NCBI RefSeq assembly: GCF_918814575.1
Contig: NZ_CAKKNS010000001.1
Coordinates: 520,182-584,181 of the forward strand
DNA: 64,000 bases
Direction: 5' to 3'
DNA from: Periweissella fabaria
GTDB taxonomy: Bacteria > Bacillota > Bacilli > Lactobacillales > Lactobacillaceae
The notes under the pieces were generated by a model. The model saw nothing but the letters and a program-made list of their open reading frames with translations. It did not search any database and was not told where the DNA came from. The position numbers and the translations under genes are program-made. The number at the start of each line of letters is the position of its first letter. Position 1 is the first letter of the stretch. Shown here one piece after another: positions 12 to 47,267 of this stretch.

Positions 12-1553
12 TTACTTCAATGACAATGCCGCAACATCAATTTCCCATGGTAACCAATCCCGGAAGAATTCTCCTTCGTGGCTAACTAGAATCAGATTAC
101 CTTCAAATCGAATCAAGGCTTTTTTCAGCGCTTGCTTCGTATCTTCATCTAAGTGATTCGTTGGTTCATCCATGATTAAGAAGTTACTAGGAATTAATTC
201 CATCATTGCTAACTTAACTTTCGTTTGTTCCCCACCGGATAATAGGTGCATCGCTTTTTGGGCATTGGCGGCATTAATCCCGGCTGCACCAAGGCGTTGG
301 CGGGCCATCCGGGGTTCTAATTTAGGAAACGCATCAGCCATTACTTCAAGTGGCGTCATCTTATCGTCGTCCCAGTCTAAATCTTGATTAAAGTAGTTCA
401 CTTTAACCGCTGGCGCAAATTTACTTTCCCCATTCAGTGGCGTTATCTTGCCTAAAATTGATTTAATTAACGTTGACTTTCCGGCCCCATTAAAGCCTTT
501 TAGTAATAGTTTTTGCCCGTGGGTCATCGCAAAACTAACTGGGCTTAGCAAGGCGTGGGTATACCCAACTGTTAAATGCTTAACTTGTAACACTTCTTGT
601 GATTGCATTGGTACATATGGAAAATCAAAACTTGCGTGTAATTCTTCATCTGGAGCATCAACGATTTCCATTTTTTGCAGCATTTTTTCACGGGAACGCG
701 CTTGTTTTGATTTAGTACCCGCTTTATTTTTACTAATAAATTTTTCGGCTTTTGCAATCACAACTTGTTGCTTTTCAAAGCTACGTAATTGTTGTTCTCG
801 TTTTTCGGCCTTTTGACGCATTGCTTGTTGGAAACTCCCACGGTATTTAGTAATTTTCCCAAAGGCAATATCGGCAATCGTATTGGTCACTTGTTCTAAA
901 AATTCGTAATCATGGGAAATAATAATGGCACCACCATCAAAACCTTGTAAAAATTCGACGAGCCATTCAATATGGGCCGTGTCTAAATTATTCGTTGGTT
1001 CATCTAAAATAATGACATCATCGTTTTCAAGTAACAGTTTGGCTAAAATAACTTTTGAACGTTGCCCACCTGACATTTCACCAGTTAAGTGATCAACACC
1101 AATCGCATTCAAACCTAACCCGGTCACCACTTTATCAATTTTAGTATCTAATTCATAAAAATTAGCAGCTTCGAGCTGTTCTTGTAACTGGCCGGCCTTA
1201 ACTAATAATTCGTCATCGGCAGTTTCACCGTATTGCGCATATAAATCATTAATTTGTGCTTCTTTATCAAATAATTCTTGAAACGCGGTCTGGAGGAATT
1301 GATACATGGTCATGTCAGCTGGAACTTCTGCATATTGATCTAAATAACCCACTTTTAGGTTTTTCTGCCAGTTAATCATCCCCGCTACCGGTAATGTTTG
1401 GCCGGTTAAAATCTTAATTAATGTTGATTTCCCCGCACCATTTTGACCAACGATTCCCATGTGTTCGTGCTTATTTAATTGAAATTCTGCGTCATCATAT
1501 AATTGCTTATCAGCAAAACTCATTGATAAACCACTAACTTCTAATAATGCCAT
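12..1553 (-). CDS. ABC-F family ATPase (YfmM/YbiT-like)
   Basis: A 513-aa protein with two ABC ATPase cassettes and no membrane segments, the ABC-F layout. Members bind the ribosomal E site and act in translation rescue or antibiotic protection. The first cassette has Walker A GQNGAGKS (residues 36-43), signature MSGGQRSK and Walker B ending LDEPTNNLD. The second has GFNGAGKS (about residue 355), LSGGEQTK and MDEPTNHLD. A charged linker between the cassettes (about residues 245-300) fits the P-site tRNA-interaction motif. The ATG start follows AGAGGG. It is a close paralogue of the ABC-F gene at 3391-5004. Whether it gives drug resistance or has a housekeeping role cannot be told from sequence. 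Confidence 0.93.
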   Translation of the reverse strand: MALLEVSGLSMSFADKQLYDDAEFQLNKHEHMGIVGQNGAGKSTLIKILTGQTLPVAGMINWQKNLKVGYLDQYAEVPADMTMYQFLQTAFQELFDKEAQINDLYAQYGETADDELLVKAGQLQEQLEAANFYELDTKIDKVVTGLGLNAIGVDHLTGEMSGGQRSKVILAKLLLENDDVIILDEPTNNLDTAHIEWLVEFLQGFDGGAIIISHDYEFLEQVTNTIADIAFGKITKYRGSFQQAMRQKAEKREQQLRSFEKQQVVIAKAEKFISKNKAGTKSKQARSREKMLQKMEIVDAPDEELHASFDFPYVPMQSQEVLQVKHLTVGYTHALLSPVSFAMTHGQKLLLKGFNGAGKSTLIKSILGKITPLNGESKFAPAVKVNYFNQDLDWDDDKMTPLEVMADAFPKLEPRMARQRLGAAGINAANAQKAMHLLSGGEQTKVKLAMMELIPSNFLIMDEPTNHLDEDTKQALKKALIRFEGNLILVSHEGEFFRDWLPWEIDVAALSLK

Positions 1554-1649
1554 TGCGCCCTCTTTTCCATTGTATAAATTCCCAATATATCTAAATAATG
1601 CTACGCCCTTATGTCGGCTATTTCAACTATCAATTTCTAACGACCAAAA

Positions 1650-1674
1650 AACCAGCGCAACAATTGCACTGGTT
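1650..1674 (-). terminator. Rho-independent terminator
   Basis: An inverted repeat, AACCAGTGCAA pairing with TTGCGCTGGTT on the minus strand, is followed by a T run. It lies just after the 560-aa ORF and separates it from the downstream ABC-F gene, so the two ABC-F genes are probably in different transcription units. Confidence 0.8.
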
Positions 1675-1687
1675 TTCATTGTTTATT

Positions 1688-3370
1688 TCATTTACCAAAT
1701 TTTAACGCATATTTGGTGGCAGTTAATCGTTCAAAGGTAAGGGCATTGGTCCCAAACTGTTTTAAAGCGGCTAACGTAATAATCGTTTTCGGGGCTAGTT
1801 TTAAACTTCGCCGGATATATTCATAAATATTACCATCAATAAACGCGAGCCGTGCTTGGGCCCCTTGACCCGTTAGGCGGGCTGTTAATTTAGTCCCTTC
1901 CGGGGTATAAAATGTGACCACTTCATCGCTTGGAAAATACGTTGCTAAATCAAGCGGCGGCATTTGCATAATATATGGGTCCGCCCCTTGGGTCCAAGCA
2001 TTAATCCCAATTTTATCCCATGCAAATCGATTACTGTAGCGACCCCCAATCATTAAGTTGATGTTAAATTTTTGTTGGTATTGGGCTACTGGGTGAGCTT
2101 GTAAGGCTTGTAATTCCGGCAAGTAAGGGCCTAATTCTTGTTGGGTAATTCCTGTGGCTGATGGCGTTAAGGCCATTTTCATCACGGCATTGGGCGATAA
2201 TAATTGGTGTTTTTGGCGAGTAATTTCATGCTTAACTAATACCAGCAACTGATCTTCTAATTGCTTAAGAAATGCCTTGGCGGTACTTCTATGCTTACCG
2301 TTAGGGACGTTTTTGACATTTAATTTATTGGCCTTTTTATTCGCAAGACGCTTAATCATCGCCGTGGCATCGGCATCCGCAATCAAGACCGCCGTGTACC
2401 CATGTTCTTGGACTGGACTAAGGTCTAAATCAACTAATTTCAGACCAGATTTAGCAAAAATTCCCACCTTTCCACGGGTCTTTTCAGCATCGAGCCGCAC
2501 ATGCGCATTCAGTGTCGCTGGCGAATTATCGCCAATTTTAATTTCACGGGGCGTGGTGGCCTTATAGACTTGGAGGTACTGGGCTGCTTGAATGGCGTTA
2601 TCGGCAGCTTTGTTGACCAACACCTCCCGGTAATTAATTAACAAATCACGCAAAGTCGTTTCATCAAATACTTCCGGCTTTTGATTATGGATGACCGTTA
2701 CGACTAATTTTTGTTGTAAAATTGCTAACCACAGATTTTCAAAAATTGCCGTAACCAGAGTTTCACGTTCAATAAAATTACGCCGGACACATGGTAATAC
2801 GATTTGGAGTCCCGGCTCAGTAAGGTTAAATAATTCATTTTTAGCTGAACCTTTTGCGGTTAATTTACCTTGACCACCATATTTTTTACCAGCGAGCTCA
2901 TGATCAAATAAATCAATCCAACTGTTAATGGGTGCTAACTTATGTTTACTAGCCATCGTTTGTACGTATACTAAGTTTAATTCTGAACTAGCCATTAATT
3001 GGCGCCGGACCGCTTTTTTTAACTTCGGCAGCTGCACATTTGTCGCCGTTAGCATCATTGTTTGTACATTGGGTAATTGTTGCCAGCGGTCCATTTGCGC
3101 CACAATACCACTCGTATATGAGTCTTGGGCCTGCAAACTTTCAATGTGGGTAAATAACTCATCAAATCCTGGGAGTGCGGTATGGGCGACTGCATCTACT
3201 TGAATGGTTAAGTTAATCGGTTGGTCACGATTAATTGGGGATTCTAGTAACACCGTGCTTAATGCATTTAGCATCGTACCGACACCCATTTTGGCGGCTT
3301 GCAACAAGTGCTTATTAAAAACAACGCGGGGGTGTTGTTTGGGCGCTTTAAATTCATACATCTTTTTCAC
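1688..3370 (-). CDS. Unrecognised 560-aa protein with C-terminal NgoFVII/BfiI-like (B3-type) domain
   Basis: Starts at a GTG placed 7 nt after AAGGAG and lies 20 bp behind the ABC-F gene at 3391-5004, so the two look co-transcribed. I recognise no full-length family. From about residue 440 to the end the pattern is Trp-x-Gln-Gly, then PYIMQMPP, YFP, an F-TPEG turn, IYEYIRRSLKL, an IT-x-x-x-L helix, FGTNALTF and Y-LKF. This follows the order of conserved elements in the C-terminal B3-like DNA-recognition domain of NgoFVII/BfiI-type restriction enzymes. No phospholipase-D HxK nuclease motif is visible, so it is not a standard enzyme of that class. The first 250 residues (LPGFDELFTHIE, GSAKNELF, FENLWLAILQQKL) faintly recall GHKL-ATPase proteins of defence loci, but the Asn/Asp ATP-binding motifs are missing. 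The function is unknown. Confidence 0.7.
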   Translation of the reverse strand: MKKMYEFKAPKQHPRVVFNKHLLQAAKMGVGTMLNALSTVLLESPINRDQPINLTIQVDAVAHTALPGFDELFTHIESLQAQDSYTSGIVAQMDRWQQLPNVQTMMLTATNVQLPKLKKAVRRQLMASSELNLVYVQTMASKHKLAPINSWIDLFDHELAGKKYGGQGKLTAKGSAKNELFNLTEPGLQIVLPCVRRNFIERETLVTAIFENLWLAILQQKLVVTVIHNQKPEVFDETTLRDLLINYREVLVNKAADNAIQAAQYLQVYKATTPREIKIGDNSPATLNAHVRLDAEKTRGKVGIFAKSGLKLVDLDLSPVQEHGYTAVLIADADATAMIKRLANKKANKLNVKNVPNGKHRSTAKAFLKQLEDQLLVLVKHEITRQKHQLLSPNAVMKMALTPSATGITQQELGPYLPELQALQAHPVAQYQQKFNINLMIGGRYSNRFAWDKIGINAWTQGADPYIMQMPPLDLATYFPSDEVVTFYTPEGTKLTARLTGQGAQARLAFIDGNIYEYIRRSLKLAPKTIITLAALKQFGTNALTFERLTATKYALKFGK

Positions 3371-3390
3371 AGGGGAACTCCTTTATACCT

Positions 3391-5004
3391 TTAATCGGTT
3401 GGCGTATTTAGTGATAAATCACTGATGTCTAGCACATCTAATAACCAGTCTTGATAAAAATCAGCTTCATGACTAACTAAAATTAAGTTACCTGGAAATT
3501 GCTTTAACGCTCGTTGCAACGCTTGTTTACTTGCTTCATCCAAATGATTGGTTGGTTCATCCATAATTAAAAAATTACTAGGCGTTAACTTCATTAAAGC
3601 TAATTTAACTTTCGCTTGTTCACCACCGGATAGTAACGCCAACGGTTTTTGGGCATTTTGTTTGTTAATTCCGGCGTTATTTAGCGCGCGCCGAATCGCT
3701 TGTAGTTCAAGGTCTGGAAAGTGATCACGTAAAACATCCAAAGGCGTTAATTGCTCATTATCCCAGGCTAGATCTTGATTAAAGTAACTAATTACAACGT
3801 CATCACTAAAACTAGCATGCCCATTTAACGCCATTAATTGACCCAAAATCGTTTTAATTAGTGTTGATTTACCAGCACCATTAAACCCAACCAAGGCTAA
3901 TTTTTGCCCTGCTACCATTTCAAATGTCACTGGTTGCAGCAAGGCTTGCTCGTAACCGACGCACAACTCTTCAACCGTTAGCGTTGTGGCTGGAGGAACC
4001 GGTGCACTATCAAATGGTTCATCATAAATCGCGTATGGGTCTTCAACTTCCTGGCTCGGTGCTTCATATAATGGAAAGTCAAAATACGAGCGTAAACTTT
4101 GTTCTGGTGCTTCTACTAAGGTTAATTTATCCAACATCCGCCCACGTGATTTAGCCTGTTTAGCCTTTGTACCGGCTTGATTTTTATCAATAAATTTTTG
4201 GGTCTTTGCAATTAATTCTTGTTGTTGCGTAAATTCCCGTTGTTGCCGCTTACGGTTTTCATTTTTTTGGCGCATCGCCTCTTGGAAGCTCCCACGATAT
4301 TTCGTCATTTTACCAAACGCAATATCAACAATACTGTTGGTGACTTGTTCTAAAAAATCATAATCGTGTGAGACAATCAGCGTTGTCCCCGTAAAGGCTT
4401 GTAAAAAGCCAACTAACCATTCAATATGCGCCGTATCAAGATAATTCGTTGGTTCGTCTAACAATAAGACATCATCGTTAGCTAGGAGCAACTTGGCTAA
4501 AATTATTTTAGAACGTTGCCCACCCGATAACTCACTAGTCGTGCGTTCAGCTAATTCAGTCAATCCCAATCCCGTGATAACTTTTTGCACTTTAGTATCT
4601 AAATCATAAAAATCAGCTTGTTCAAGTTGTTCTTGAATTTGCCCCGCTTGGATTAATAATTGATCATCTCCATCAACCGCATATTGGTCATAATACGCCC
4701 CCATCTGCGCTTCCAATTGATAAAGCTCGGTAAATGCGGTTGCCAAAAATTCCCGGACTGTCAAGTGCTTATCGATTTGGGCATATTGGTCAAGATAACC
4801 GATTCGGGTATCTTTTTGCCACTTAATGGTGCCACTAATTGGTAAGATTTGTTCGGTAATCAACTTAATTAACGTTGATTTACCGGTTCCATTTTGGCCG
4901 ACAATTCCCAAATGTTCACCTGGCTGAAGTTCAAATTCAGCATCGTGATACAAGAGCTTTTCATCATAGCTCATTGATAAACCACTAACTTCTAATAATG
5001 CCAT
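3391..5004 (-). CDS. ABC-F family ATPase, second paralogue
   Basis: A 537-aa twin-cassette cytosolic ATPase closely related to the ABC-F protein at 12-1553. Both begin MALLEVSGLSMS and share GQNG-GKST, LSGGQRSK and DEPTNYLDTAHIEWL in cassette one, and GFNGAGKS, LSGGEQAK and MDEPTNHLD in cassette two. It differs by an insertion of about 20 acidic/proline-rich residues in the inter-domain linker (about residues 315-340, around YAIYDEPFDSAPVPP). The linker is the part that contacts tRNA or the peptidyl transferase centre in ABC-F proteins, so the two copies may have diverged in specificity. ATG follows AAAGGAGC. It is the first gene of a two-gene unit with the 560-aa ORF. Confidence 0.93.
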   Translation of the reverse strand: MALLEVSGLSMSYDEKLLYHDAEFELQPGEHLGIVGQNGTGKSTLIKLITEQILPISGTIKWQKDTRIGYLDQYAQIDKHLTVREFLATAFTELYQLEAQMGAYYDQYAVDGDDQLLIQAGQIQEQLEQADFYDLDTKVQKVITGLGLTELAERTTSELSGGQRSKIILAKLLLANDDVLLLDEPTNYLDTAHIEWLVGFLQAFTGTTLIVSHDYDFLEQVTNSIVDIAFGKMTKYRGSFQEAMRQKNENRKRQQREFTQQQELIAKTQKFIDKNQAGTKAKQAKSRGRMLDKLTLVEAPEQSLRSYFDFPLYEAPSQEVEDPYAIYDEPFDSAPVPPATTLTVEELCVGYEQALLQPVTFEMVAGQKLALVGFNGAGKSTLIKTILGQLMALNGHASFSDDVVISYFNQDLAWDNEQLTPLDVLRDHFPDLELQAIRRALNNAGINKQNAQKPLALLSGGEQAKVKLALMKLTPSNFLIMDEPTNHLDEASKQALQRALKQFPGNLILVSHEADFYQDWLLDVLDISDLSLNTPTD

Positions 5005-5276
5005 TTTATGCTCCTTTCACAATTCAACTATCTGTATCTGTAAAACTACCTTATAATAATTAACCATTCAATACTATTAAAAGAACATTGAATGGCTGTC
5101 GATTTAACATTTCATTACCTTGTGCGACTTACATGTCAGCTTAATGCCTTAAAATTTTAGGCAAGGTTATTAAATTATATCAAAAGCATCTCAATTATTA
5201 TATGCTTAGCTGGTAATCCCTATATTGATGATTTTCCTAAAAAGTCCTAAAGTTCGCCCCTCTAAAGCATCCCTAG
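5005..5276. other. Intergenic stretch without a gene
   Basis: AT-rich sequence between two divergent genes. It should hold the minus-strand promoter of the ABC-F gene. I see no coding ORF, repeat or RNA motif in it. Confidence 0.5.
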
Positions 5277-9569: not shown

Positions 9570-12500
9570 TTACTTCTCGTCCTCCTTCCGATGACGCAAA
9601 CCTAATCCTCCAATCAAACCAAGGATTGTTTCACCAATAATGGTTAAAATCGTTGCTGTTTGCGCTTGTTCATCTGTTTTAGGTAATTGCTTTTGTACAT
9701 GGGTACTTTCAGTGGGGGATTTTTCAATATTTTTAGCTGGCTTAGTTTTATTAATTACTGTAACTGGTACCACCTTAGTAGTATTTTTGGGGTGTTTTTT
9801 ATTAACTATTGTTGCATCTTGAGCAGCACTCTTCGTTGTACCGTTATCAACTCTGGCTTGACTAGCACTTACTGTAGCTGCACTTGCGTAATTTCCTGCT
9901 TCTGTTGCCGTTGATCCTGCTTCACTAGCTGTTGTTTGCGCATTATCAGCACTACTGTTGGCAGCGTGTACTGCATTAGCGGTGCTAGTTGCGACATTAT
10001 TTTCTGCTTCTGCTGTTGCTTGTGCTTGACTGGCAACTGCAGCGGCTGATGTCGCCGTACTTGCGGCACTCTTAGCGACTGCGGCATCACTTGCCGCCGT
10101 TGAGGCAGCCAATGATGCCACACTTTCAGCCGAGCTCGCCTTTGTTAATTGTTCTATTGCAGTACTTGCAGCTAAATTAGCACCTTCAATATCACCTTGT
10201 TGAGTAGCTAAAATTGCTTGACTATAAGCAGTTGAAGCTATGCTATTGGCGATGACAGCTTCACTTTCTGCACTCGAAGCTATTTGGCTTTGTACCTGAG
10301 CATTTTTAGTTGCATCAGCACCAATAGAAGCCGCAGCTGATGCAACTGATGCGGCTGATGTAGCTGTAGAACTTGCATTCATAGCAGCACTTGCAGCTGA
10401 CATAATTACCTGATTATCAGGATTTATTGCTGCAGTTGAGGATACTTCACTAGCTGCATTATTAGCTAAATTGGCATAACTAGTTGCAACTGCAGCATCA
10501 GAATCACCAACTTTGCTATATGACGTGGCCGTAGTAGCACTACTGTTAGCTGAGTTATAATCACCCTTTGTATTTTCTGTTACTTTATTTGTGCTATCTG
10601 CTGCTGACTTGGCCTTATCTACTGATACTTGACCAATTGCTTGTTGTTCCGCCAGCAGTGCATTTGAAGCCACACTTGCAGCACTAGCGGCAGTACTTGC
10701 ACTTGCTATCGCAGCCGATTGCTGCTCATTAGCAGTCGACATCGCTCTTGCAGCTACACTACTAGCAATTGCAACTTGCTTAGCATCTGCAGTCGCATTA
10801 TTAATAGCCACCGTTGCGGCGGCAGCATAACTAGTTGCTGCACTTGCAAATGATTTATAAGCAGAATCATTTGCATAACTGGCTGCACTGGCTGCGCTAG
10901 CTGCAGATTGAGCAGCACTTAAAGCTTCATTAGCCGTGCTTGTAGCACTTTGTTCGTTCTTTAAAGCTATAGATGCAACTGACGCGGCACTAGCAGCTAT
11001 AGCCGCAGCGTTATCAGCCATTGCTTGCTGAGTGACGGCAGTCGAAGCAGCAGTCGAAGCAACACTAGCTGCACTCATAGCAGTGTTAGCGTATGATTTT
11101 ACATTTGCTGTATCACTATATTCATTAGCTAAAGATTGTGCTGCCTTACTAAAACCATCTGCAGCACTAGCAGCACTAGCAGCATCATTGACACTGCTTG
11201 TTAAAGTTACAGCAGTTGCTGATGTAGCCTGCGCATTACTTTGAGTATTATTGTTATTATCAACAGATGTTTGGTCACCTACCACGACATCATAATTAAC
11301 TTTTACGTAATTCAAACTTGAGACAGCACGCAAAATGGTATTAGCTGTTAACGCAAATCCTGCTGGTAAAGTAATTGACCAGTTACCTTGACTATCTGCC
11401 TGAGCCATGTATTTAGTAGTATCTTGCCGATTTGCTACTAATGTCCCCGCTGGCAAACCAGTAATGCCATTACCATTTTGATCAGTCAAAGTAATAAAAC
11501 CCTCTGGTAATGTTTTACCAGTAACAACCGTTGTATGATCTGTCACTGCAGGTTCAATATTAACTTTATTATCCGCGGCGGTTACAAACTCGAGATATTT
11601 GGTTGTTGACAATGCAATTGCCAAGCTATTGATATCTTTTTCAGAATCAAGAGACATCCCTTGTGCAGTAGGTGACGAATATTGATAAACCGCACTATTC
11701 AACATCGGAATATTAAAAGATAAGTATGGTCCAATAGCCATCGCATTTGGTGTATTATATATAATTTTTTGAAGCTGTCCTTTAATATTTCCTTGATAGA
11801 CAAAATAAAAAACACTACTCTTCGGATTAGTATTTTGGGTTAAGTCAAATACAACCTTGTGCGCATGATACATTGTAATTACTGAATTAGCACCTTGTGT
11901 CTCCAACAACGTTACCTGACCATTACCATCTACTGTAACAGTTACATTCGCTCCATCTTCGAAATTAAAATTACTAGTACCAAATAAATTAATAATAATT
12001 GCATTTTGCGATCCAAGATTAGTAGCATCAACATTTAAAAAGCCACCGTTACCAACAACAAAAGTCCCACTACCATCTAGTTGGATGACACCAGTATTAG
12101 CAGTCCACAGCTGGCCATTTTGTTTAATATTAATTGTTCCATAATCATTAACCGTACCAGCACCTGTAATATATATTGCCTTATTTCCCGATGTATCTGC
12201 ATTATTTTGATTGTAATTAATTACTCCAGATTTACTTACTGTTAACACTCCCGTACCAGCTAAGAATATGCCAGAGAACCCGTTCATATTAAGTCCTTGT
12301 AAATTCAACGTCCCATCAACAATCACTGATCCACCTGCCGTGTAAATTAAGGCATTGGTTCCAGTTTCATTGGCTCCGTATGCGGTTGCCCGTGATAAAT
12401 TAACAGTTGCACCTTGGTCAATTTTGAAAACACCATTAGGTGCAAGGACAACTGCCGTACCCCCAGCAGTTGTCCCAGTAAAGTTCGCCCCCGCAAGGAC

Positions 12501-13967
12501 TTCAACATTACTTGACTCAAAAATTTCTTGGTCTAAAACACCGTTACCTGCGATTGAAACATTACTCCCGTCAACCGGTGATTTATAACTATAGCTAGTA
12601 AGTAGCTTTGTATTCACATCCCCAGAAATAAAGACCGGAATTCCATATGAACTAATCATCTGTGACCCATAGTAATTAACATTATTAAATGTTAATGATT
12701 GCACTTTAGGATCATTTGCTGACCCCATCAAATGAATCGGCCCCCACCAAGATGCTGCCCATAAATTGATATCCGTGAATTTTACATTAGCATTTTGAAC
12801 TCCAGCTGGCATATCAACAAAGTTATTTTGCCAATCTAACGTATAATATTTTCCAGCTGTTCCAGTGGTACCATTAATAGTTAAACTCCGTGTTGGAATA
12901 ACTGCCGCAGCAAATAGTGGAACATTAGCTGTAGATAAACTGATATCATTTTGTAAATTAATCTGGTTAATTTGACCGTTAAAGAGCGCATCATGGAATT
13001 CTTGGGCAGTCGAAACATTAGCCACATTATCTTGTTTCAAAAGGATATTAGGATTTAATTTACCTGTAATTCTATTCACTTGCTCATTAGTTTGTGAACT
13101 AATAGTACTCGTGTCGTTACTCAACGATAGATTAACCGTCTTTGCGATATCTGTAATCGCTAAACTGTTACCGATACTGGTATTGATATTGGTACTATTA
13201 GAAACTCTTATTGGAATAGCATTACTATTTATCACACCGCTGTTGGCAGTTTCACTAGCAGCACTATTTGTTGTTGCGCTACTATTGGCAGTTTCACTAG
13301 CAGCACTATTTGTTGTTGCGCTACTATTGGCAGTTTCACTAGCAGCACTACTTGTTACTGTGCTACTATTGGCAGTTTCACTAGCAGTACTACTTGTTAC
13401 TGCGCTACTATTGGCAGTTTCACTAGCAGCACTATTTGTTATTGCTTTACTATTGGCAGTTTCACTAGCAGCACTATTTGTTGTTGCTTTACTATTGGCA
13501 GTTTCACTAGCAGCACTATTTGTTATTGCTTTACTGTTGGCAGTTTCACTAGCAGCACTACTTGTTAGTGTGCTACTATTGGCAGTTTCACTAGCAGCAC
13601 TATTTGTTACTGCACTACTATTGGCAGTTTCACTAACAGCACTATTTGTTGTTGCTTTACTGTTGGCAGTTTCACTAGTAGCACTACTTGTTACTGTGCT
13701 ACTAGTGGCAGTTTCACTAGCAGCACTATTTGTTGTTGCGCTATTTACACCTTTATTATCAGAGGACGGTCTCTTTTGCGTATAAATACTTGCTGTTGCA
13801 GTATTATGTATCTCATCCGCTGCAGTATGACTAGGCATCCCCGCAATCAATCCCACTCCAATTCCCAAAAATATAATTGGTGCATAAAACCAATTTTTAC
13901 CAGCTTTATACATTTTATATCGTTTTTTGGCGATTATTTGATTATGGTTATTAATCCTTCTTTGCAT
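9570..13967 (-). CDS. Large repeat-rich, sortase-anchored surface adhesin
   Basis: A 1465-aa cell-wall protein. The start at 13967 follows GGGGGGAGC; an upstream in-frame ATG would swallow that site. The N-terminus carries the KxYKxGKxW motif (KMYKAGKNW) followed by a hydrophobic signal, as in serine-rich adhesins. Next come about twelve 14-residue Ser/Ala/Thr repeats around SETANS (roughly residues 80-250). Then follow a parallel beta-helix-like region resembling pectate-lyase-fold adhesive domains (about 320-770), an Ig-like domain (about 800-880) and a very long Ala/Ser-rich stalk (about 900-1385). The end has LPKTDE, a hydrophobic helix and a basic tail, a sortase signal with Asp in place of the usual Gly. 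Two glycosyltransferases upstream probably glycosylate the Ser/Thr-rich parts. The ligand is unknown. Confidence 0.88.
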   Translation of the reverse strand: MQRRINNHNQIIAKKRYKMYKAGKNWFYAPIIFLGIGVGLIAGMPSHTAADEIHNTATASIYTQKRPSSDNKGVNSATTNSAASETATSSTVTSSATSETANSKATTNSAVSETANSSAVTNSAASETANSSTLTSSAASETANSKAITNSAASETANSKATTNSAASETANSKAITNSAASETANSSAVTSSTASETANSSTVTSSAASETANSSATTNSAASETANSSATTNSAASETANSGVINSNAIPIRVSNSTNINTSIGNSLAITDIAKTVNLSLSNDTSTISSQTNEQVNRITGKLNPNILLKQDNVANVSTAQEFHDALFNGQINQINLQNDISLSTANVPLFAAAVIPTRSLTINGTTGTAGKYYTLDWQNNFVDMPAGVQNANVKFTDINLWAASWWGPIHLMGSANDPKVQSLTFNNVNYYGSQMISSYGIPVFISGDVNTKLLTSYSYKSPVDGSNVSIAGNGVLDQEIFESSNVEVLAGANFTGTTAGGTAVVLAPNGVFKIDQGATVNLSRATAYGANETGTNALIYTAGGSVIVDGTLNLQGLNMNGFSGIFLAGTGVLTVSKSGVINYNQNNADTSGNKAIYITGAGTVNDYGTINIKQNGQLWTANTGVIQLDGSGTFVVGNGGFLNVDATNLGSQNAIIINLFGTSNFNFEDGANVTVTVDGNGQVTLLETQGANSVITMYHAHKVVFDLTQNTNPKSSVFYFVYQGNIKGQLQKIIYNTPNAMAIGPYLSFNIPMLNSAVYQYSSPTAQGMSLDSEKDINSLAIALSTTKYLEFVTAADNKVNIEPAVTDHTTVVTGKTLPEGFITLTDQNGNGITGLPAGTLVANRQDTTKYMAQADSQGNWSITLPAGFALTANTILRAVSSLNYVKVNYDVVVGDQTSVDNNNNTQSNAQATSATAVTLTSSVNDAASAASAADGFSKAAQSLANEYSDTANVKSYANTAMSAASVASTAASTAVTQQAMADNAAAIAASAASVASIALKNEQSATSTANEALSAAQSAASAASAASYANDSAYKSFASAATSYAAAATVAINNATADAKQVAIASSVAARAMSTANEQQSAAIASASTAASAASVASNALLAEQQAIGQVSVDKAKSAADSTNKVTENTKGDYNSANSSATTATSYSKVGDSDAAVATSYANLANNAASEVSSTAAINPDNQVIMSAASAAMNASSTATSAASVASAAASIGADATKNAQVQSQIASSAESEAVIANSIASTAYSQAILATQQGDIEGANLAASTAIEQLTKASSAESVASLAASTAASDAAVAKSAASTATSAAAVASQAQATAEAENNVATSTANAVHAANSSADNAQTTASEAGSTATEAGNYASAATVSASQARVDNGTTKSAAQDATIVNKKHPKNTTKVVPVTVINKTKPAKNIEKSPTESTHVQKQLPKTDEQAQTATILTIIGETILGLIGGLGLRHRKEDEK
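13237..13740 (-). repeat. 42-bp tandem repeat array inside the adhesin gene
   Basis: About twelve in-frame copies of a 42-bp unit encode 14 residues centred on AASETANS. Copies differ mainly in the variable T/K/S-A/V/I positions. On the plus strand each copy begins around ttggcagtttcactagcagc. The high identity makes the array prone to slippage or recombination, which would change stalk length without a frameshift. Confidence 0.9.
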
Positions 13968-14343
13968 TATAGCTCCCCCCATAAAATAACTACTCATAAA
14001 TATTTTGATTTTATAACTCTAAGTTACACATTTCCTAAGCATTTTCATGCTCTTTTTGATTATACGAGGAATTTCCTAAGATATTAGCGTTGTAATATTC
14101 TGCTAATACTTATTTTGTCTTATCATTAAAGTAAGTATTACATTTATTTAAACCATCTTTATTTTGTAATTACTTAGTAATTAAATTCATATTAATTACG
14201 TATTTTAAATTTTAAAAATACTCATATTTTTAAAAAAATCAATACTGTAATTTATTTGTAAACTATACTAATTTCAAAACACTAAATAATCAGCATTCAG
14301 CGCGGTTTACTAAAAAAATATCCAGAAAGCTTTCACTTTGCTA
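13968..14343. other. Adhesin upstream region
   Basis: AT-rich intergenic DNA that should contain the adhesin promoter. It holds two direct copies of ATTTCCTAAG (14030-14039 and 14071-14080), start to start 41 bp, about four helical turns apart. No gene was found. Confidence 0.45.
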
Positions 14344-15141: not shown

Positions 15142-16632
15142 TTAATTTTTACCAATACTACGCCATTGTGTTACTAAACGATTAGCGTCAAATTTTTGTG
15201 CTGTTTTTAAAGCATTACTTTTTAATTTCTTAATTTTATTGACATCTTCAAATGTTGCTACGATTAATTTTGCTAAGTTATGTGGCGTGCGATTCGTAAT
15301 CGTAATGCCGTTTTCACCATTGATTACGAGATTTTTATTTATATAGTCAACAGCATAACAAGCTACCGGTACTCCATGGCTCATGCCTTCTAACGCGTTA
15401 ATCCCAAAACCTTCACTTTTAGCTGCCGTTAAAAATAAGGCGGCATCTTGATAAATGTCTCGATTATCAATACTATAGTCAAGGAAATGCACTGCATCAA
15501 CAATCTCAGTATTGTGAAGTTGATGTTCAATTTGTTGCTTATAATCTGTTGAAGAATAATATCCCTTCAAATACAATTCAGCGTCTGGTTTTTGTTCGTG
15601 AATACTTTGAAAAATGTCAATTAAACCGGAAATATTTTTATCTGGTGCTAATCGTCCAACGTATACAATTTTAGTTAAATCCGTTTGTTTACTAATATCT
15701 ATACTTGTATATGTAGCTGATTGCAACGTACAGGCATTAATACCAGTATAACCTTGTTTCAGATCTGCTGTCTGCGCATCCGTTGCAGTAGCAATTAAGT
15801 CAAAATGTTTACCTACGGGTGTCACAATTCCTGCATATGCTTGTTTCAGCATTTTTTCATCTGTAATTTGGTTCTTCTCTAAATGATTTTCGTGCAAATA
15901 TGCCACTGTCTTGACTGGATTAAGAACTCCTAAAACCGCCTCAACAACCCCAGGTCGATCTGCTACGAAAATCCCTGGTTCAGCTATATTTAGTTCATTT
16001 AAAAAGAACGTAAATAACTGCACTTGCGTATCAAAAACATAATCTTGACCATAAAAATTGAGTAACTTATACATCGTTGGTGTAACAACCCCATTAATAA
16101 ACATATGCACAATTTCAATGACTGACTTACCATTGACATCAAAAAATGTTTGTAATGCCACTGATCCATCAGGATGATAAGTCTCTTCCATTGAAAGGAA
16201 CCCCCGCCAATCGTAATACTGTGTTATTTCTTTATTACCAACGCGATCATAATACACAATATCTCCAACTAATCCAACCGTTCCAGGCATAACATTTATT
16301 TTGGCTAATTTACGCCCCATTGAATCAATAGTCGAATAGTTTGCATTAACACTTGTCACATGATAATCCCGTAATGGAATGGTTGATAAAAAACGGATAC
16401 TCGTTTCTTGACGTTCAATATTATTGGCGTGTTGAAAATAGTCATACATATTAATATATTGGGTGTTTTCAATTCCCATATTAATAATATCACGAGCCAA
16501 AAAGCGGTTATAATCCTGTGTCACAATTTTGGCAGCTTCTCCATTTGCTAATAAGCTTTGCGTCCGCTTTATTTGTACAAATTCAACACCTGAATTAAAG
16601 CCATAAATATTTTCACCAACTGAATATATCAT
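15142..16632 (-). CDS. GT4-type glycosyltransferase, second of a pair
   Basis: A 496-aa protein. The ATG at 16632 sits behind AAAAAGGAGGG; longer readings overlap the preceding gene. N-terminal MIYSVGENIYGFNSGVEF resembles the first residues of TagE/GtfA-type enzymes. The C-terminal half has the nucleotide-sugar fold with VYVGRLAPDKNISGLI and the EX7E motif in SEGFGINALEGMSHGVP, so it looks catalytically competent. It starts 13 bp after the sister glycosyltransferase. Such pairs in lactobacilli (TagE5/E6, GtfA/GtfB-like) attach GlcNAc or glucose to Ser/Thr of surface proteins. The nearby Ser-rich adhesin is the likely acceptor; poly(glycerol phosphate) teichoic acid is the alternative. Confidence 0.82.
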   Translation of the reverse strand: MIYSVGENIYGFNSGVEFVQIKRTQSLLANGEAAKIVTQDYNRFLARDIINMGIENTQYINMYDYFQHANNIERQETSIRFLSTIPLRDYHVTSVNANYSTIDSMGRKLAKINVMPGTVGLVGDIVYYDRVGNKEITQYYDWRGFLSMEETYHPDGSVALQTFFDVNGKSVIEIVHMFINGVVTPTMYKLLNFYGQDYVFDTQVQLFTFFLNELNIAEPGIFVADRPGVVEAVLGVLNPVKTVAYLHENHLEKNQITDEKMLKQAYAGIVTPVGKHFDLIATATDAQTADLKQGYTGINACTLQSATYTSIDISKQTDLTKIVYVGRLAPDKNISGLIDIFQSIHEQKPDAELYLKGYYSSTDYKQQIEHQLHNTEIVDAVHFLDYSIDNRDIYQDAALFLTAAKSEGFGINALEGMSHGVPVACYAVDYINKNLVINGENGITITNRTPHNLAKLIVATFEDVNKIKKLKSNALKTAQKFDANRLVTQWRSIGKN

Positions 16633-16645
16633 TATTCCCTCCTTT

Positions 16646-18205
16646 TTAACGCACATGTTTAACTTTAAGTGTCTTAGCATCATCCAATAATTGCTGCCAC
16701 GCTTGCCAAACATTTTCTTCAGAATAACGATGTGCTGATTCATAAGCACCATTACTCAAGCGCTGTAACGTTCTTTTGTGTGTAAGGACGCTAATTATTT
16801 TGGCCCCCATTGCCTTATAATCATTAAATGGGACCACGTATCCATTAATATTATCTTGTATAATTTCATTTGGTCCGTAATTGACATCATACGTAATCCC
16901 AACAACCCCATGTGAGATTGCTTCCATAATAGCCAAATTAAAGCCTTCCATTAATGAAGTCAGCCCAAAAATCTGGGCATCATCTAAGATACTTTGCACG
17001 TCATCAATATAACCTTTAAATGTCACAACATCTTCTAAATCAAGCTCTTTAATTAAAGCCGTAATTTTTCTCTTTTCGGCATAATTGTCAGTCGAATCTG
17101 CATAACCGTACAAATCTAAACTAACTTCTGGAAATTTTTCATGTGCAAGTGCGACTGCCCGTATAAGATCGCCTAGACGTTTTTCATATGCAATTCGAGC
17201 TACCGCCACAATTTTACCGAATGTTCGAGTATTCATTTTAATTCGTGTTTGTTCTAAAATTACTTCCGGTACCACACCTACCGGAATTACATAATTACGT
17301 TGAATTGTTGGAAAACGAGCTTTGACATCTTTAGCTTGTTTTTGGGTTGCCGAAACAACAGCCGAGTATTTATCGACATTTGTTAATGCATATTCGTAGT
17401 TATTATTCATAACTGAATTCATAGGATCTTGCGCATCCCCAGCTTGTGAACTGTGCAAATACATAACTGTAAATGCTGGTTTGTGCAAGCGCGTTAATGC
17501 TTGATCAGCCAGTGATGAACGATCGAGCACAAAAATATTCGTCTCTGAACTTTGCTCATTAATTTGATTCAAAAAGAATTCAAATAATTCATCAATTGTA
17601 TCAAATTGATGAATTGTCCCTCCATGCTCACTCAAAAGCCAACCTGTCTTTTCAACTTCATTAACTGCATTTTTGCGATTAAAGTTTCTTAGCACTATTT
17701 GTCCCCCTGGTGTATACCAAGTTTCAGTACCAATTTTATTATCAGGTGTATACCATTGCGACTTAGAGCAGAATCCCCTTTGATCATAAAAATCCACACG
17801 ATATAAGTTATTGAACCCATCAAACATCTCAACTGAATAAACTTGTTGACTTTCCTTAATATAATTAAAACGGGCAACCATTTGATTATTTGCCCGTTTA
17901 ACAATGAAGCGACTATTATCACTTTCATCGGTAAAGTGTAAATTCTTTAATCCAAACTCGATATCATTTACGTGTAGTTCTTTTGGTTCAACAAACAATG
18001 CTTGTTGATAAAAATCAAACATATTAATCATTTGTGAATCATTTATTCCCGCTTCGTGTGCTGTTACGTGTGAATCATAAACCCAATCCCGCGTTAAAAA
18101 ATAATATGCCGTTTTATTTTTATCAAACAAGTGCGCCCGCTTTAATTGTGCATGTTCTATCCCAGATTTTTTAGCTGGCATACCAAAATTAATAAAATAA
18201 ATCAT
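16646..18205 (-). CDS. GT4-type glycosyltransferase, first of a pair
   Basis: A 519-aa paralogue of the downstream enzyme. It starts MIYFINFGMPAKKSGIEHAQ, the TagE-like N-terminus, followed by a large beta-sheet insertion (about residues 80-230). The Rossmann-type C-terminal domain has VAVARIAYEKRLGDLIRAV and the EX7E motif in MEGFNLAIMEAISHGV. Both copies keep their catalytic motifs, unlike GtfA/GtfB pairs in which one partner is a chaperone. First gene of the two-gene unit. Substrate (adhesin or wall teichoic acid) is inferred from context only. No secA2/secY2 genes are in the window. Confidence 0.82.
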   Translation of the reverse strand: MIYFINFGMPAKKSGIEHAQLKRAHLFDKNKTAYYFLTRDWVYDSHVTAHEAGINDSQMINMFDFYQQALFVEPKELHVNDIEFGLKNLHFTDESDNSRFIVKRANNQMVARFNYIKESQQVYSVEMFDGFNNLYRVDFYDQRGFCSKSQWYTPDNKIGTETWYTPGGQIVLRNFNRKNAVNEVEKTGWLLSEHGGTIHQFDTIDELFEFFLNQINEQSSETNIFVLDRSSLADQALTRLHKPAFTVMYLHSSQAGDAQDPMNSVMNNNYEYALTNVDKYSAVVSATQKQAKDVKARFPTIQRNYVIPVGVVPEVILEQTRIKMNTRTFGKIVAVARIAYEKRLGDLIRAVALAHEKFPEVSLDLYGYADSTDNYAEKRKITALIKELDLEDVVTFKGYIDDVQSILDDAQIFGLTSLMEGFNLAIMEAISHGVVGITYDVNYGPNEIIQDNINGYVVPFNDYKAMGAKIISVLTHKRTLQRLSNGAYESAHRYSEENVWQAWQQLLDDAKTLKVKHVR

Positions 18206-44820: not shown

Positions 44821-45060
44821 TTATTCATCGCTCCCCTTTTGCTTATCATCGGTATTTTTTACGACACCAATAACCGCTAAAAAGGTCAAAATCGCACTTA
44901 TCAGTAATTGAATTTGGCCCCAATCACCCCGAAATTCAATCTTAAAAACAGCTAAAGCTGATTGAATAACCATTAATAGCGCTGTAATCGCAGCCATTAA
45001 GACTTGAGCGTTAATACTTCCATCCGTATTAAGAAGTTGCTTTTTAATCAGTTTAATCAT
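44821..45060 (-). CDS. Holin-like small membrane protein
   Basis: A 79-aa protein. ATG at 45060 follows AGGGA. It has two hydrophobic helices (about residues 16-36 and 46-64), a short loop and a charged tail (KNTDDKQKGSDE). The pattern IQLLISAILTFLAVIGVVKNTDD resembles the phi-LC3-type phage holin family. No lysin or other phage structural gene is nearby. It diverges from an XRE-ImmA operon across a palindrome-rich region, so it may be controlled by that repressor. Alternative: an unrelated small membrane protein. Confidence 0.6.
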   Translation of the reverse strand: MIKLIKKQLLNTDGSINAQVLMAAITALLMVIQSALAVFKIEFRGDWGQIQLLISAILTFLAVIGVVKNTDDKQKGSDE

Positions 45061-45083
45061 TGTTGTCCCTGCTTTCATCGTAT

Positions 45084-45270
45084 TGTAGAAATTCATTGCA
45101 CTGTTGTAGAAAGTATTCTACAATATAAACATAGCTAAATAAGTACCTATGTTTATCCTTAGATACCTGTATCTAACCCTATCCATAACGGATGGTAGTA
45201 ACGTATAACGTAGTGTATTATTGCAGATAATTTTCTGCGAGTCAAATAAAATATAGAATATTTTTCTACA
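45084..45270. promoter_or_regulatory. Divergent control region with five palindromes
   Basis: In order: TGTAGAA-N4-TTCTACA at 45105-45122 (a further TGTAGAA half-site at 45084-45090); ATAAACATAG-N12-CTATGTTTAT at 45125-45156; TTAGATAC-N2-GTATCTAA at 45159-45176; GCAGA-N6-TCTGC at 45223-45238; TATAGAA-N5-TTCTACA at 45252-45270. The first and last share the TTCTACA half-site, one near each divergent gene start. They are the natural operators for the XRE repressor encoded at 45287. Confidence 0.75.
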
Positions 45271-45286: not shown

Positions 45287-45619
45287 ATGAATTTCGAAGA
45301 AAAACTTATTGCTATTTGGTCGGCTAAGCGCCCCGATATCAAGAGCGGGCGGGAATTAGAACGCGCCATCGGACTATCTAATGGTCAAATTTCCAAATGG
45401 CGTACTAGTAACCCTAGTCAAAAAACCATGCAGAAAATTGCTGATTTTTTCCATATTAGTGTCGATAGCCTATTAAGTGGTCGCATTGAAAGTACCGCTA
45501 ACCAACCAGTAAGCAATACCGACCTTGCCAGTGAAGGCGTCTTTTTCTATGAAGGTCGTGAAATCTCAGAAGATACGATGAACTTCATTCGGGAAACGTT
45601 AAAACGGATTCAAAAATAA
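45287..45619 (+). CDS. XRE-family repressor (ImmR/CI-like)
   Basis: A 110-aa protein. Its N-terminal helix-turn-helix (SGRELERAIGLSNGQISKWRTSNPSQKTMQKIADFF, about residues 20-55) is followed by a short C-terminal region with no LexA-type peptidase domain. ATG follows CAGGAGA. The downstream gene encodes an ImmA-type metallopeptidase, the classic partner that cleaves ImmR-like repressors in ICEBs1 and phi105-type elements. An operator-like TTCTACA palindrome sits just before the ribosome binding site, suggesting autoregulation. Confidence 0.87.
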   Translation: MNFEEKLIAIWSAKRPDIKSGRELERAIGLSNGQISKWRTSNPSQKTMQKIADFFHISVDSLLSGRIESTANQPVSNTDLASEGVFFYEGREISEDTMNFIRETLKRIQK

Positions 45620-45637
45620 ATAATAGGACGTACATGT

Positions 45638-46060
45638 ATGGATTATATCTACGAATTATTAAATTATGCACTCGAACATGGTATCGGGGTGCAATTAGAT
45701 AGTGCGCATCTTGCTCCTGATGAACCTTCTTGGTGTGTTCCTGAAGCGCGATTCATTATGGTCAACATGAACGCCGCTAACCAATATGAGATATCCTTTC
45801 AGTTCTCACATGAGTTAGCACACATCATCAATGGCGACACTGCCGAAAGTCGCCTCGCATTTCAAAGCCGCGGGTACTCAAAGACTGAGTACGCTGCACA
45901 CGCCACAGCAATTAAGTTACTTATGTCGCTGTACGCAAAAAAAGATCCTGAACTCAATTATGTGAAGTTCATGGACTCGTTTGTTATCCCTGATCGCATG
46001 GAAGATGTGGTGAAGGAAGAAATTAAAAACTACTACATTGGAGGTCAAGGTAATGAGTAA
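45638..46060 (+). CDS. ImmA/IrrE-family metallopeptidase
   Basis: A 140-aa M78-type peptidase with the zinc motif HExxH in FSHELAHIINGD (about residues 64-75). The third ligand region is probably EYAAHATAIKLLM (YAAHA is the usual ExxAN/A-x-x-A helix). It begins 18 bp after the repressor gene. By family precedent it cleaves the repressor when activated and derepresses the element. Its last codons overlap the start of hsdS (ATGAGTAA), so both are translationally coupled. Confidence 0.86.
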   Translation: MDYIYELLNYALEHGIGVQLDSAHLAPDEPSWCVPEARFIMVNMNAANQYEISFQFSHELAHIINGDTAESRLAFQSRGYSKTEYAAHATAIKLLMSLYAKKDPELNYVKFMDSFVIPDRMEDVVKEEIKNYYIGGQGNE

Positions 46061-47267
46061 TGTACCTAAGGTTAGATTTAAAGGATTTACGGATGAATGG
46101 GAAGAACGTAAGTTGAAAGAGTTATTTCAACCAACAAAAAACAAAAATAATAATGGGTTATATAACCAAAATGATATTCTAGCTGCATCTTTGGGAACAG
46201 AGCTAATTCCAAAAAGAATATTTTTTGGTTTAAAATCAACCGAAGAATCTGTAAAAAATTATCGTATTGTTGAAAACGGAGATTTGATATATACAAAATC
46301 TCCTATAAAAGGATTTCCAAACGGAATTATTAGAACCAATAAAGGTAATGTAGGGATAGTACCTTCTCTCTACTGTGTTTATACATTACAAAAAGATATT
46401 AACTCTAGTATTATTCAATTCTATTTTGAAGATAAAAATAGATTAGATTTCTATTTATTTCCACTTGTAAATGTTGGTGCACGAAATAATGTTAACATTA
46501 CTGACTTAGAATTCTTAGAAGGGAAAGTTATTATTCCTAAATCGTACGAGGAACAAAGTAAGATTGTTCAATTTATGGAAAAACTTAACACAACTATCGA
46601 TCTTTCTCAGCGCCAATTAAATTTACTCAAGAAACAGAAAAAAGCCATGCTCCAAAAAATGTTACCTCAAAAAGGTGAAACAGTTCCGAAACTTCGCTTT
46701 GATGGCTTTGATGGTGATTGGGAAGAAACAACAATTAACGATGTGTCCACATCGTTTTCTGGTGGAACTCCTAGTGCCACTAACTCTAAATACTATAAGG
46801 GTGATATACCCTTTATACGGTCTGGAGAAATACACGATAAGAAGACAGAATTATTTTTGACTAAATTAGGATTAACTAATTCTTCCGCAAAGTTAGTTAA
46901 ACAAGGCGATATATTGTATGCCATGTATGGGGCTACAAGTGGTGAGGTAGACATCTCAAAGATAAATGGTGCTATTAATCAAGCAACTTTAGCCATCATA
47001 CCAAATAATGATATTGATTCTTATTTTCTAAAAGAAATATTATCAAAAGACAAAAATCATATTCTAGGAACATATTTGCAAGGTGGTCAAGGAAATTTGT
47101 CGGGAAATATAATTAAATCTCTCCAGATTATGATTCCCATCCTACCAGAACAAAAAAAAATAGGCACCTTCTTCAAGTCGCTTGATAATCAGATTACCGA
47201 ACTTGAACGGCAACTTGAACACACTAAGCAAATGAAGAAAGCGCTGCTTCAGAAGATGTTTGTATAA
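46053..47267 (+). CDS. hsdS: Orphan type I restriction specificity subunit
   Basis: A 404-aa HsdS; ATG at 46053 follows TTGGAGG. It contains two target-recognition domains, each starting with the same motif (VPKVRFKGFTDEWEER and VPKLRFDGFDGDWEET) and each ending in a conserved spacer helix (KKQKKAMLQKM about residue 205, TKQMKKALLQKMF at the C-terminus). Length and symmetry are those of a complete subunit recognising a bipartite site. No hsdR or hsdM is in the window, so it must pair with subunits encoded elsewhere or be an allele donor for recombination. The TRDs are more AT-rich than surrounding genes, a sign of horizontal transfer. Confidence 0.92.
   Translation: MSNVPKVRFKGFTDEWEERKLKELFQPTKNKNNNGLYNQNDILAASLGTELIPKRIFFGLKSTEESVKNYRIVENGDLIYTKSPIKGFPNGIIRTNKGNVGIVPSLYCVYTLQKDINSSIIQFYFEDKNRLDFYLFPLVNVGARNNVNITDLEFLEGKVIIPKSYEEQSKIVQFMEKLNTTIDLSQRQLNLLKKQKKAMLQKMLPQKGETVPKLRFDGFDGDWEETTINDVSTSFSGGTPSATNSKYYKGDIPFIRSGEIHDKKTELFLTKLGLTNSSAKLVKQGDILYAMYGATSGEVDISKINGAINQATLAIIPNNDIDSYFLKEILSKDKNHILGTYLQGGQGNLSGNIIKSLQIMIPILPEQKKIGTFFKSLDNQITELERQLEHTKQMKKALLQKMFV

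What the first reader, a model, noticed from the sequence alone, without database searches (positions are those of the whole stretch)
1688..5004. ABC-F ATPase in one operon with an unknown protein carrying a restriction-enzyme-type DNA-binding domain
Seen: an ABC-F gene is followed 20 bp later by a 560-aa ORF with GTG start and good ribosome binding site, and a terminator closes the pair. The ORF's last about 120 residues follow the motif order of the B3-like C-terminal domain of NgoFVII/BfiI enzymes, yet no PLD nuclease motif is present. Its N-terminal half faintly recalls GHKL-type proteins of defence loci without their ATP-binding residues. Known: ABC-F proteins act on the ribosome. Inference: this could be a defence or stress module linking translation and DNA sensing.
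Basis: partly seen in the sequence, partly recalled or inferred. Interest (0 to 1): 0.68.

Follow-up and report, generated by a model that had tools for sequence, protein, structure and literature searches.

The report
ATP-less MORC-like protein with B3 reader
A bacterial gene next to a ribosome-acting ABC-F gene encodes a protein that joins a dead MORC/MutL-type ATPase to the DNA-reading part of a restriction enzyme; it looks like a restriction-system offshoot kept without any cutting or ATP-burning parts, and what it does is untested.

Summary
ORF X (1688-3370, minus strand, 560 aa, GTG) follows ABC-F2 (3391-5004) by 20 bp and ends in a terminator hairpin. Its last ~130 residues are a B3 DNA-binding domain: R.NgoAVII-B3/DNA complexes are the top structural matches, and a profile of NgoFVII C-termini built without X scores X at 94 bits (best of 996 shuffles, 12). 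Its first ~390 residues form a GHKL+S5 module (predicted structure close to Hsp90, MORC and topo VI-B). It is homologous to PADLOC PDC-M33A GHKL proteins, but the N-, D- and G-box ATP-site residues are all lost. Both parent domains occur side by side in restriction-modification operons (Z1 helicase, GHKL, NgoFVII nuclease, C5-methylase, Vsr). X occurs in 3 of 5 genomes of the genus and in none of 296 other family genomes. It is under purifying selection, and its B3 part is the most conserved. Best reading: a non-catalytic, sequence-specific DNA-binding descendant of a restriction system, co-expressed with a diverged ABC-F. Coupling of DNA sensing to translation is possible but untested. New variant of a known kind.

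The parts
3391..5004 (-). ABC-F2, 537 aa, diverged tandem copy of the conserved Lactobacillaceae ABC-F; first gene of the two-gene unit
   Evidence: Pfam ABC_tran x2 + ABC_tran_Xtn; NF000355 369.9 bits, just under its cut-off of 380; tree: groups with ABC-F1 of the same species, 100/98, on a long branch of 0.64
1688..3370 (-). ORF X, 560 aa: degenerate GHKL-S5 module fused to a B3 domain
2201..3370 (-). GHKL + S5 module with lost ATP site (residues about 1-390)
   Evidence: AF2 pLDDT 88.2, pTM 0.84; VIA-align Z 16.2 Hsc82, 14.7 MORC4, 14.6 MORC3, 14.2 topo VI-B; N/D/G-box residues lost
1691..2083 (-). B3-type DNA-binding domain (residues 430-560)
   Evidence: HMM of NgoFVII C-termini without X: 94 bits, E 4.6e-28; Foldseek top five all R.NgoAVII; VIA-align Z 9.1, first 25 rows all B3, next unrelated row 3.0
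1647..1678 (-). terminator hairpin that closes the ABC-F2/X unit
   Evidence: -18.1 kcal/mol, z -4.2; hairpins at the same place in G056 and G114
12..1553 (-). ABC-F1, 513 aa, the conserved family ABC-F; lies beyond the terminator hairpin
   Evidence: orthologue at E <= 1e-130 in 109 of 121 family genomes
5062..5097 (-). 14-bp inverted repeat upstream of ABC-F2, overlapping a promoter-like site; possible operator, not conserved in siblings
   Evidence: only copy in the genome

Best explanation
X is a non-catalytic DNA-reading protein derived from a restriction-modification operon of the paraMORC/PDC-M33/Mza kind. Shown by computation: its N-terminal half has the GHKL+S5 fold but none of the ATP-binding motifs, its C-terminal part is the B3 target-recognition domain of NgoFVII/NgoAVII-type restriction proteins, and it lies behind a diverged ABC-F copy in one short unit. 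Inferred: the B3 domain binds a short specific double-stranded DNA site; the ATP-less GHKL-S5 part no longer clamps DNA by ATP-driven dimerisation but serves as a scaffold; and with no nuclease, methylase or helicase partner found beside it, X regulates or senses DNA rather than cutting it. ABC-F2, expected to be made from the same mRNA, acts on the ribosome.
For: GHKL homology: tblastn 1e-15 to an Enterococcus plasmid protein and 127 bits against a subfamily HMM built without X. Structure. ATP site lost: X keeps 11 of 42 columns that are at least 85% conserved in 47 relatives, and the N-box E/Q/N/D, the D-box D and G and the GG.GIGK stretch are changed or deleted. B3. Both parent domains are adjacent genes in RM operons. 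Retained by selection: dN/dS about 0.13 between G056 and G114. B3 is the best-kept part, with dN 0.19 against 0.35-0.41 elsewhere. X is basic, pI 9.65. B3 domains alone bind cognate DNA specifically in CglI/NgoAVII (PMC4267653).
Against: No DNA site is known and no binding was tested. X056 is less basic than X (pI 8.5). G114 carries lesions in X and ABC-F1. No regulatory site is conserved upstream of ABC-F2. The region of X's B3 domain at residues 453-465 is modelled with low confidence.
Confidence: 0.6

Rival explanations
1. X and ABC-F2 form a working anti-phage or stress unit: the B3 domain recognises foreign or unmethylated DNA and X changes ABC-F2 action on the ribosome, slowing translation.
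For: Parent domains come from defence operons. Two-gene unit with 20-21-bp spacing kept in three species. ABC-F2 evolves fast after duplication. In G114 an McrBC-like operon lies two genes downstream.
Against: The pair is limited to one genus. No phage record encodes a relative of X, and plasmids hold only distant GHKL relatives. Searches of the held papers for ABC-F with defence terms found no ABC-F defence system. Nothing shows contact between X and ABC-F2.
Confidence: 0.2
2. X is an autoregulator: B3 binds near the promoter of the unit and represses ABC-F2/X.
For: B3 domains are also plant transcription factors. A 14-bp inverted repeat overlaps a promoter-like site upstream of ABC-F2 and is unique in the genome.
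Against: The repeat is not conserved in G056 or G114. B3 of restriction proteins binds asymmetric sites as a monomer (PMC4267653).
Confidence: 0.2
3. X is a decaying relic of a restriction system, carried along beside a duplicated ABC-F.
For: ATP site and partners lost. X is frameshifted in G114.
Against: dN/dS about 0.13 on an unsaturated pair, over a stretch open in both. Full-length ORF in G000 and G056 at 59% identity with no indel.
Confidence: 0.15

Closest known systems
PDC-M33A / paraMORC GHKL ATPases of RM operons (PADLOC PDLC04582; Iyer, Abhiman and Aravind 2008, PMC2292703)
   Same: Same GHKL-S5 order and clear sequence homology: PADLOC E 1.6e-6, subfamily HMM 127 bits
   Different: X has no ATP-site motifs and no M33B/M33C partner genes beside it; it carries a B3 domain that was not seen on any of the sampled GHKL relatives
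NgoFVII/NgoAVII/CglI/BfiI PLD restriction proteins, C-terminal B3 domain (Pfam PF20731)
   Same: The C-terminal domain aligns end to end: 94 bits, hhalign 99.4%; B3 structure
   Different: No PLD nuclease domain, no methylase and no Z1 helicase beside it
Mza-like loci (MzaC/Z1 helicase + GHKL + NgoFVII + C5-methylase)
   Same: Contain both parent domains as separate genes in one operon
   Different: X is a single fused protein without the rest of the system
ABC-F proteins EttA/Uup/YheS/YbiT
   Same: ABC-F1 and ABC-F2 have two ABC domains and the ABC-F linker
   Different: Not over the cut-off of any named ABC-F equivalog; ABC-F2 is genus-specific

Membership tests
GHKL ATPase (MORC/paraMORC/PDC-M33A) | GHKL + S5 fold | tested here: met
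   AF2 pTM 0.84; VIA-align Z 14-16 to Hsp90, MORC3, MORC4, SMCHD1 and topo VI-B
GHKL ATPase (MORC/paraMORC/PDC-M33A) | N, D and G boxes for ATP binding | tested here: not met
   N-box E/Q/N/D, D-box D and G, and GG.GIGK changed or deleted in X; same columns changed in the G056 orthologue
GHKL ATPase (MORC/paraMORC/PDC-M33A) | PDC-M33B partner gene nearby | tested here: not met
   No M33B in the genome (no positive control in that run) and none beside X; present in 73 loci of the set by phmmer
NgoFVII-type restriction endonuclease | C-terminal B3 recognition domain | tested here: met
NgoFVII-type restriction endonuclease | N-terminal PLD nuclease domain | tested here: not met
   No RE_NgoFVII or PLD match; that position is occupied by GHKL-S5
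NgoFVII-type restriction endonuclease | cognate methyltransferase in the operon | tested here: not met
   None in the unit or beside it
B3 DNA-binding domain | binds specific double-stranded DNA | not testable with these tools
   Fold only; needs a binding assay
ABC-F (ABC-F1, ABC-F2) | two ABC domains, ABC-F linker, no transmembrane part | tested here: met
Known anti-phage defence system | complete gene set of a described system at the locus | tested here: not met
   Only a partial PDC-M33A match among PADLOC families for X

The most novel reading that the evidence does not exclude
An ATP-independent MORC-like DNA reader whose target recognition controls a dedicated ABC-F, so that detection of foreign DNA is turned directly into a change in translation: a restriction system rebuilt as a ribosome-directed response.
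Probability: 0.12. Interest if true: 0.8.

Novelty: new variant of a known kind. Interest (0 to 1): 0.45.

Why it matters
It shows the ATPase module and the DNA-reading module of one class of restriction operon fused in one protein after loss of both enzymatic activities, yet kept by selection. That gives a testable case of a restriction system turned into a DNA-binding factor, and the bacterial paraMORC side bears on how MORC proteins came to act on DNA without restriction. If X also acts through its ABC-F partner, it would link DNA recognition to the ribosome.

Tried and rejected
Pfam and NCBIfam gave nothing significant for X. phmmer of X and a 4-row B3 profile against PDB sequences gave nothing significant; a profile with X plus NgoFVII relatives found R.NgoAVII at 4.6e-8, which is not independent of the relatives in it. 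A genome-contig scan with X alone found no relative. Phage records and viral contigs with the B3 profile gave no match.

I first read the neighbouring 302/304-aa genes of G056 and G114 as miniature GHKL-B3 copies, i.e. a tandem duplication of the whole unit. Their B3 part is certain, but the GHKL part is not significant by hhalign, so this is dropped.

The G043 hit to the B3 profile (708 aa, E 5.7e-4) lies in an ORF that looks by eye like a membrane protein and was set aside as chance. ABC-F hits near GHKL loci at about 1e-8 have E-values typical of ordinary ABC transporter ATPases and were not counted. The upstream inverted repeat as an operator is not conserved. No search could show that X lacks ATPase activity; that rests on motif loss.

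Full report
Observation. On the minus strand, ABC-F2 (5004-3391) is followed after 20 bp by ORF X (3370-1688, 560 aa, GTG, AAGGAG upstream). Nearly the same spacing (20-21 bp) and the AAGGAG occur in two sibling genomes, G056 and G114. A hairpin after X folds at -18.1 kcal/mol (no shuffle as good), and both siblings have a hairpin at the same place. Beyond it lies a second ABC-F, ABC-F1 (1553-12), which the finding did not include.

The C-terminal domain. Pfam finds nothing in X. A profile of the C-terminal part of X, its orthologue and two neighbouring B3 genes (A2) finds, across 395 genomes of the order, proteins in restriction operons. One of these (L038:7766-8761) has Pfam RE_NgoFVII and RE_NgoFVII_C, the 'B3-like DNA-binding domain'. 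In the reverse direction, an HMM of the C-termini of six such proteins, without X, scores X at 94 bits over residues 428-558; the best of 996 shuffled copies reaches 11.8. hhalign gives 99.4% probability. An AlphaFold2 model (pLDDT 74.7) has R.NgoAVII B3-DNA complexes as its best Foldseek matches. On VIA-align the first 25 rows are all B3 or B3-like domains (Z 9.1 to 5.8) and the next row is unrelated at Z 3.0.

The N-terminal half. tblastn links residues 2-371 to an Enterococcus faecalis plasmid protein (1e-15) and an Acetoanaerobium protein, both PADLOC PDC-M33A. An HMM of that subfamily built without X scores X at 127 bits. The AlphaFold2 model (pLDDT 88.2, pTM 0.84) matches Hsp90, MORC4, MORC3, SMCHD1 and topo VI-B (Z 14-16), i.e. 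GHKL plus S5. The model was built on an alignment of GHKL relatives, so the fold match depends on that homology. X keeps only 11 of 42 columns that are at least 85% conserved in 47 relatives. The N-box E/Q/N/D, the D-box D and G, and the GG.GIGK lid are changed or deleted. The G056 orthologue is altered in the same way.

Where the parts come from. In other genomes of the same order, operons encode a Z1 helicase (MzaC-like), a GHKL ATPase, two unknown proteins, an NgoFVII-type nuclease, a C5-methylase and sometimes Vsr. In Clostridia, a PDC-M33-type triad sits with an NgoFVII protein and a methylase. Iyer et al. 2008 (PMC2292703) described MORC and paraMORC ATPases in RM operons, including some neighbourhoods with a VP1/RAV (B3) protein. 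So both halves of X are neighbours in one kind of operon, and X is best read as their fusion after loss of the rest. I found no other protein with GHKL and B3 joined in the 80 loci or the order search.

Distribution and evolution. X is in 3 of 5 genomes of the genus and in none of 296 others of the family sampled. ABC-F1 has an orthologue in 109 of 121 family genomes. ABC-F2 groups with ABC-F1 of the same species (100/98) on a long branch, i.e. a tandem copy that evolved fast. Between G056 and G114, dN/dS of the comparable part of X is about 0.13. B3 is the best-kept part: dN 0.19 against 0.35-0.41 in the others for G000-G056, where dS is near saturation. In G114, X has two single-base deletions and ABC-F1 an in-frame stop; these may be real decay or assembly error. 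No GHKL protein of this family other than X was found in the five genus genomes, nor was M33B.

Mechanism. Shown by computation: fold, homology, loss of the ATP site, co-directional unit, purifying selection. Inferred: specific DNA binding by B3 (as shown for isolated B3 domains of CglI/NgoAVII, PMC4267653), scaffolding by the GHKL-S5 part, no cutting, and ribosome action by ABC-F2. Whether X senses foreign DNA, represses its own unit or does something else is open. A unique inverted repeat overlaps a promoter-like site upstream of ABC-F2 but is not conserved.

Verdict. Its functional idea is possible but untested, and the ABC-F pairing is narrow in distribution. From memory, the set of five species with one 3.0-Mb closed genome resembles Periweissella; this was not tested.

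Noticed in passing
window 45287-47267 (+): HTH regulator, ImmA/IrrE-like protein and a lone type I specificity subunit (HsdS, PF01420) with no hsdM/hsdR listed beside it, near a holin-like ORF (44821-45096): looks like a prophage remnant with an orphan HsdS.
   Followed up: partly
window 9570-13997 (-) and 15142-18205 (-): Large LPXTG surface protein of 1475 aa with KxYKxGKxW-type signal and TNSAASETANS repeats, next to two group-1 glycosyltransferases: resembles a serine-rich-repeat adhesin locus.
   Followed up: no
L019 12473-17393: In G114, downstream of the ABC-F/X block, a 349-aa coiled-coil protein, an AAA protein matching PADLOC PDC-M26A (1e-45) and a DUF2357 + PD-(D/E)XK_7 protein: an McrBC-like operon.
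   Followed up: partly
L018 6505-7413 and L019 11351-12265: 302/304-aa proteins downstream of ABC-F1 with a certain B3 domain and an unassigned N-terminal part; absent from the window's genome.
   Followed up: partly
L020 11364-13913, L018 2592-5150: Large Hsp70-like protein (about 850 aa) next to the ABC-F block, only 56% identical between siblings, much faster than the neighbouring ABC-F1.
   Followed up: no
L085, L125: NgoFVII nuclease apparently fused in one frame to a C5-methylase in Clostridia loci that also carry a PDC-M33-type GHKL.
   Followed up: no
window 5062-5097: 14-bp inverted repeat upstream of ABC-F2, present once in the genome, overlapping a promoter-like site.
   Followed up: partly
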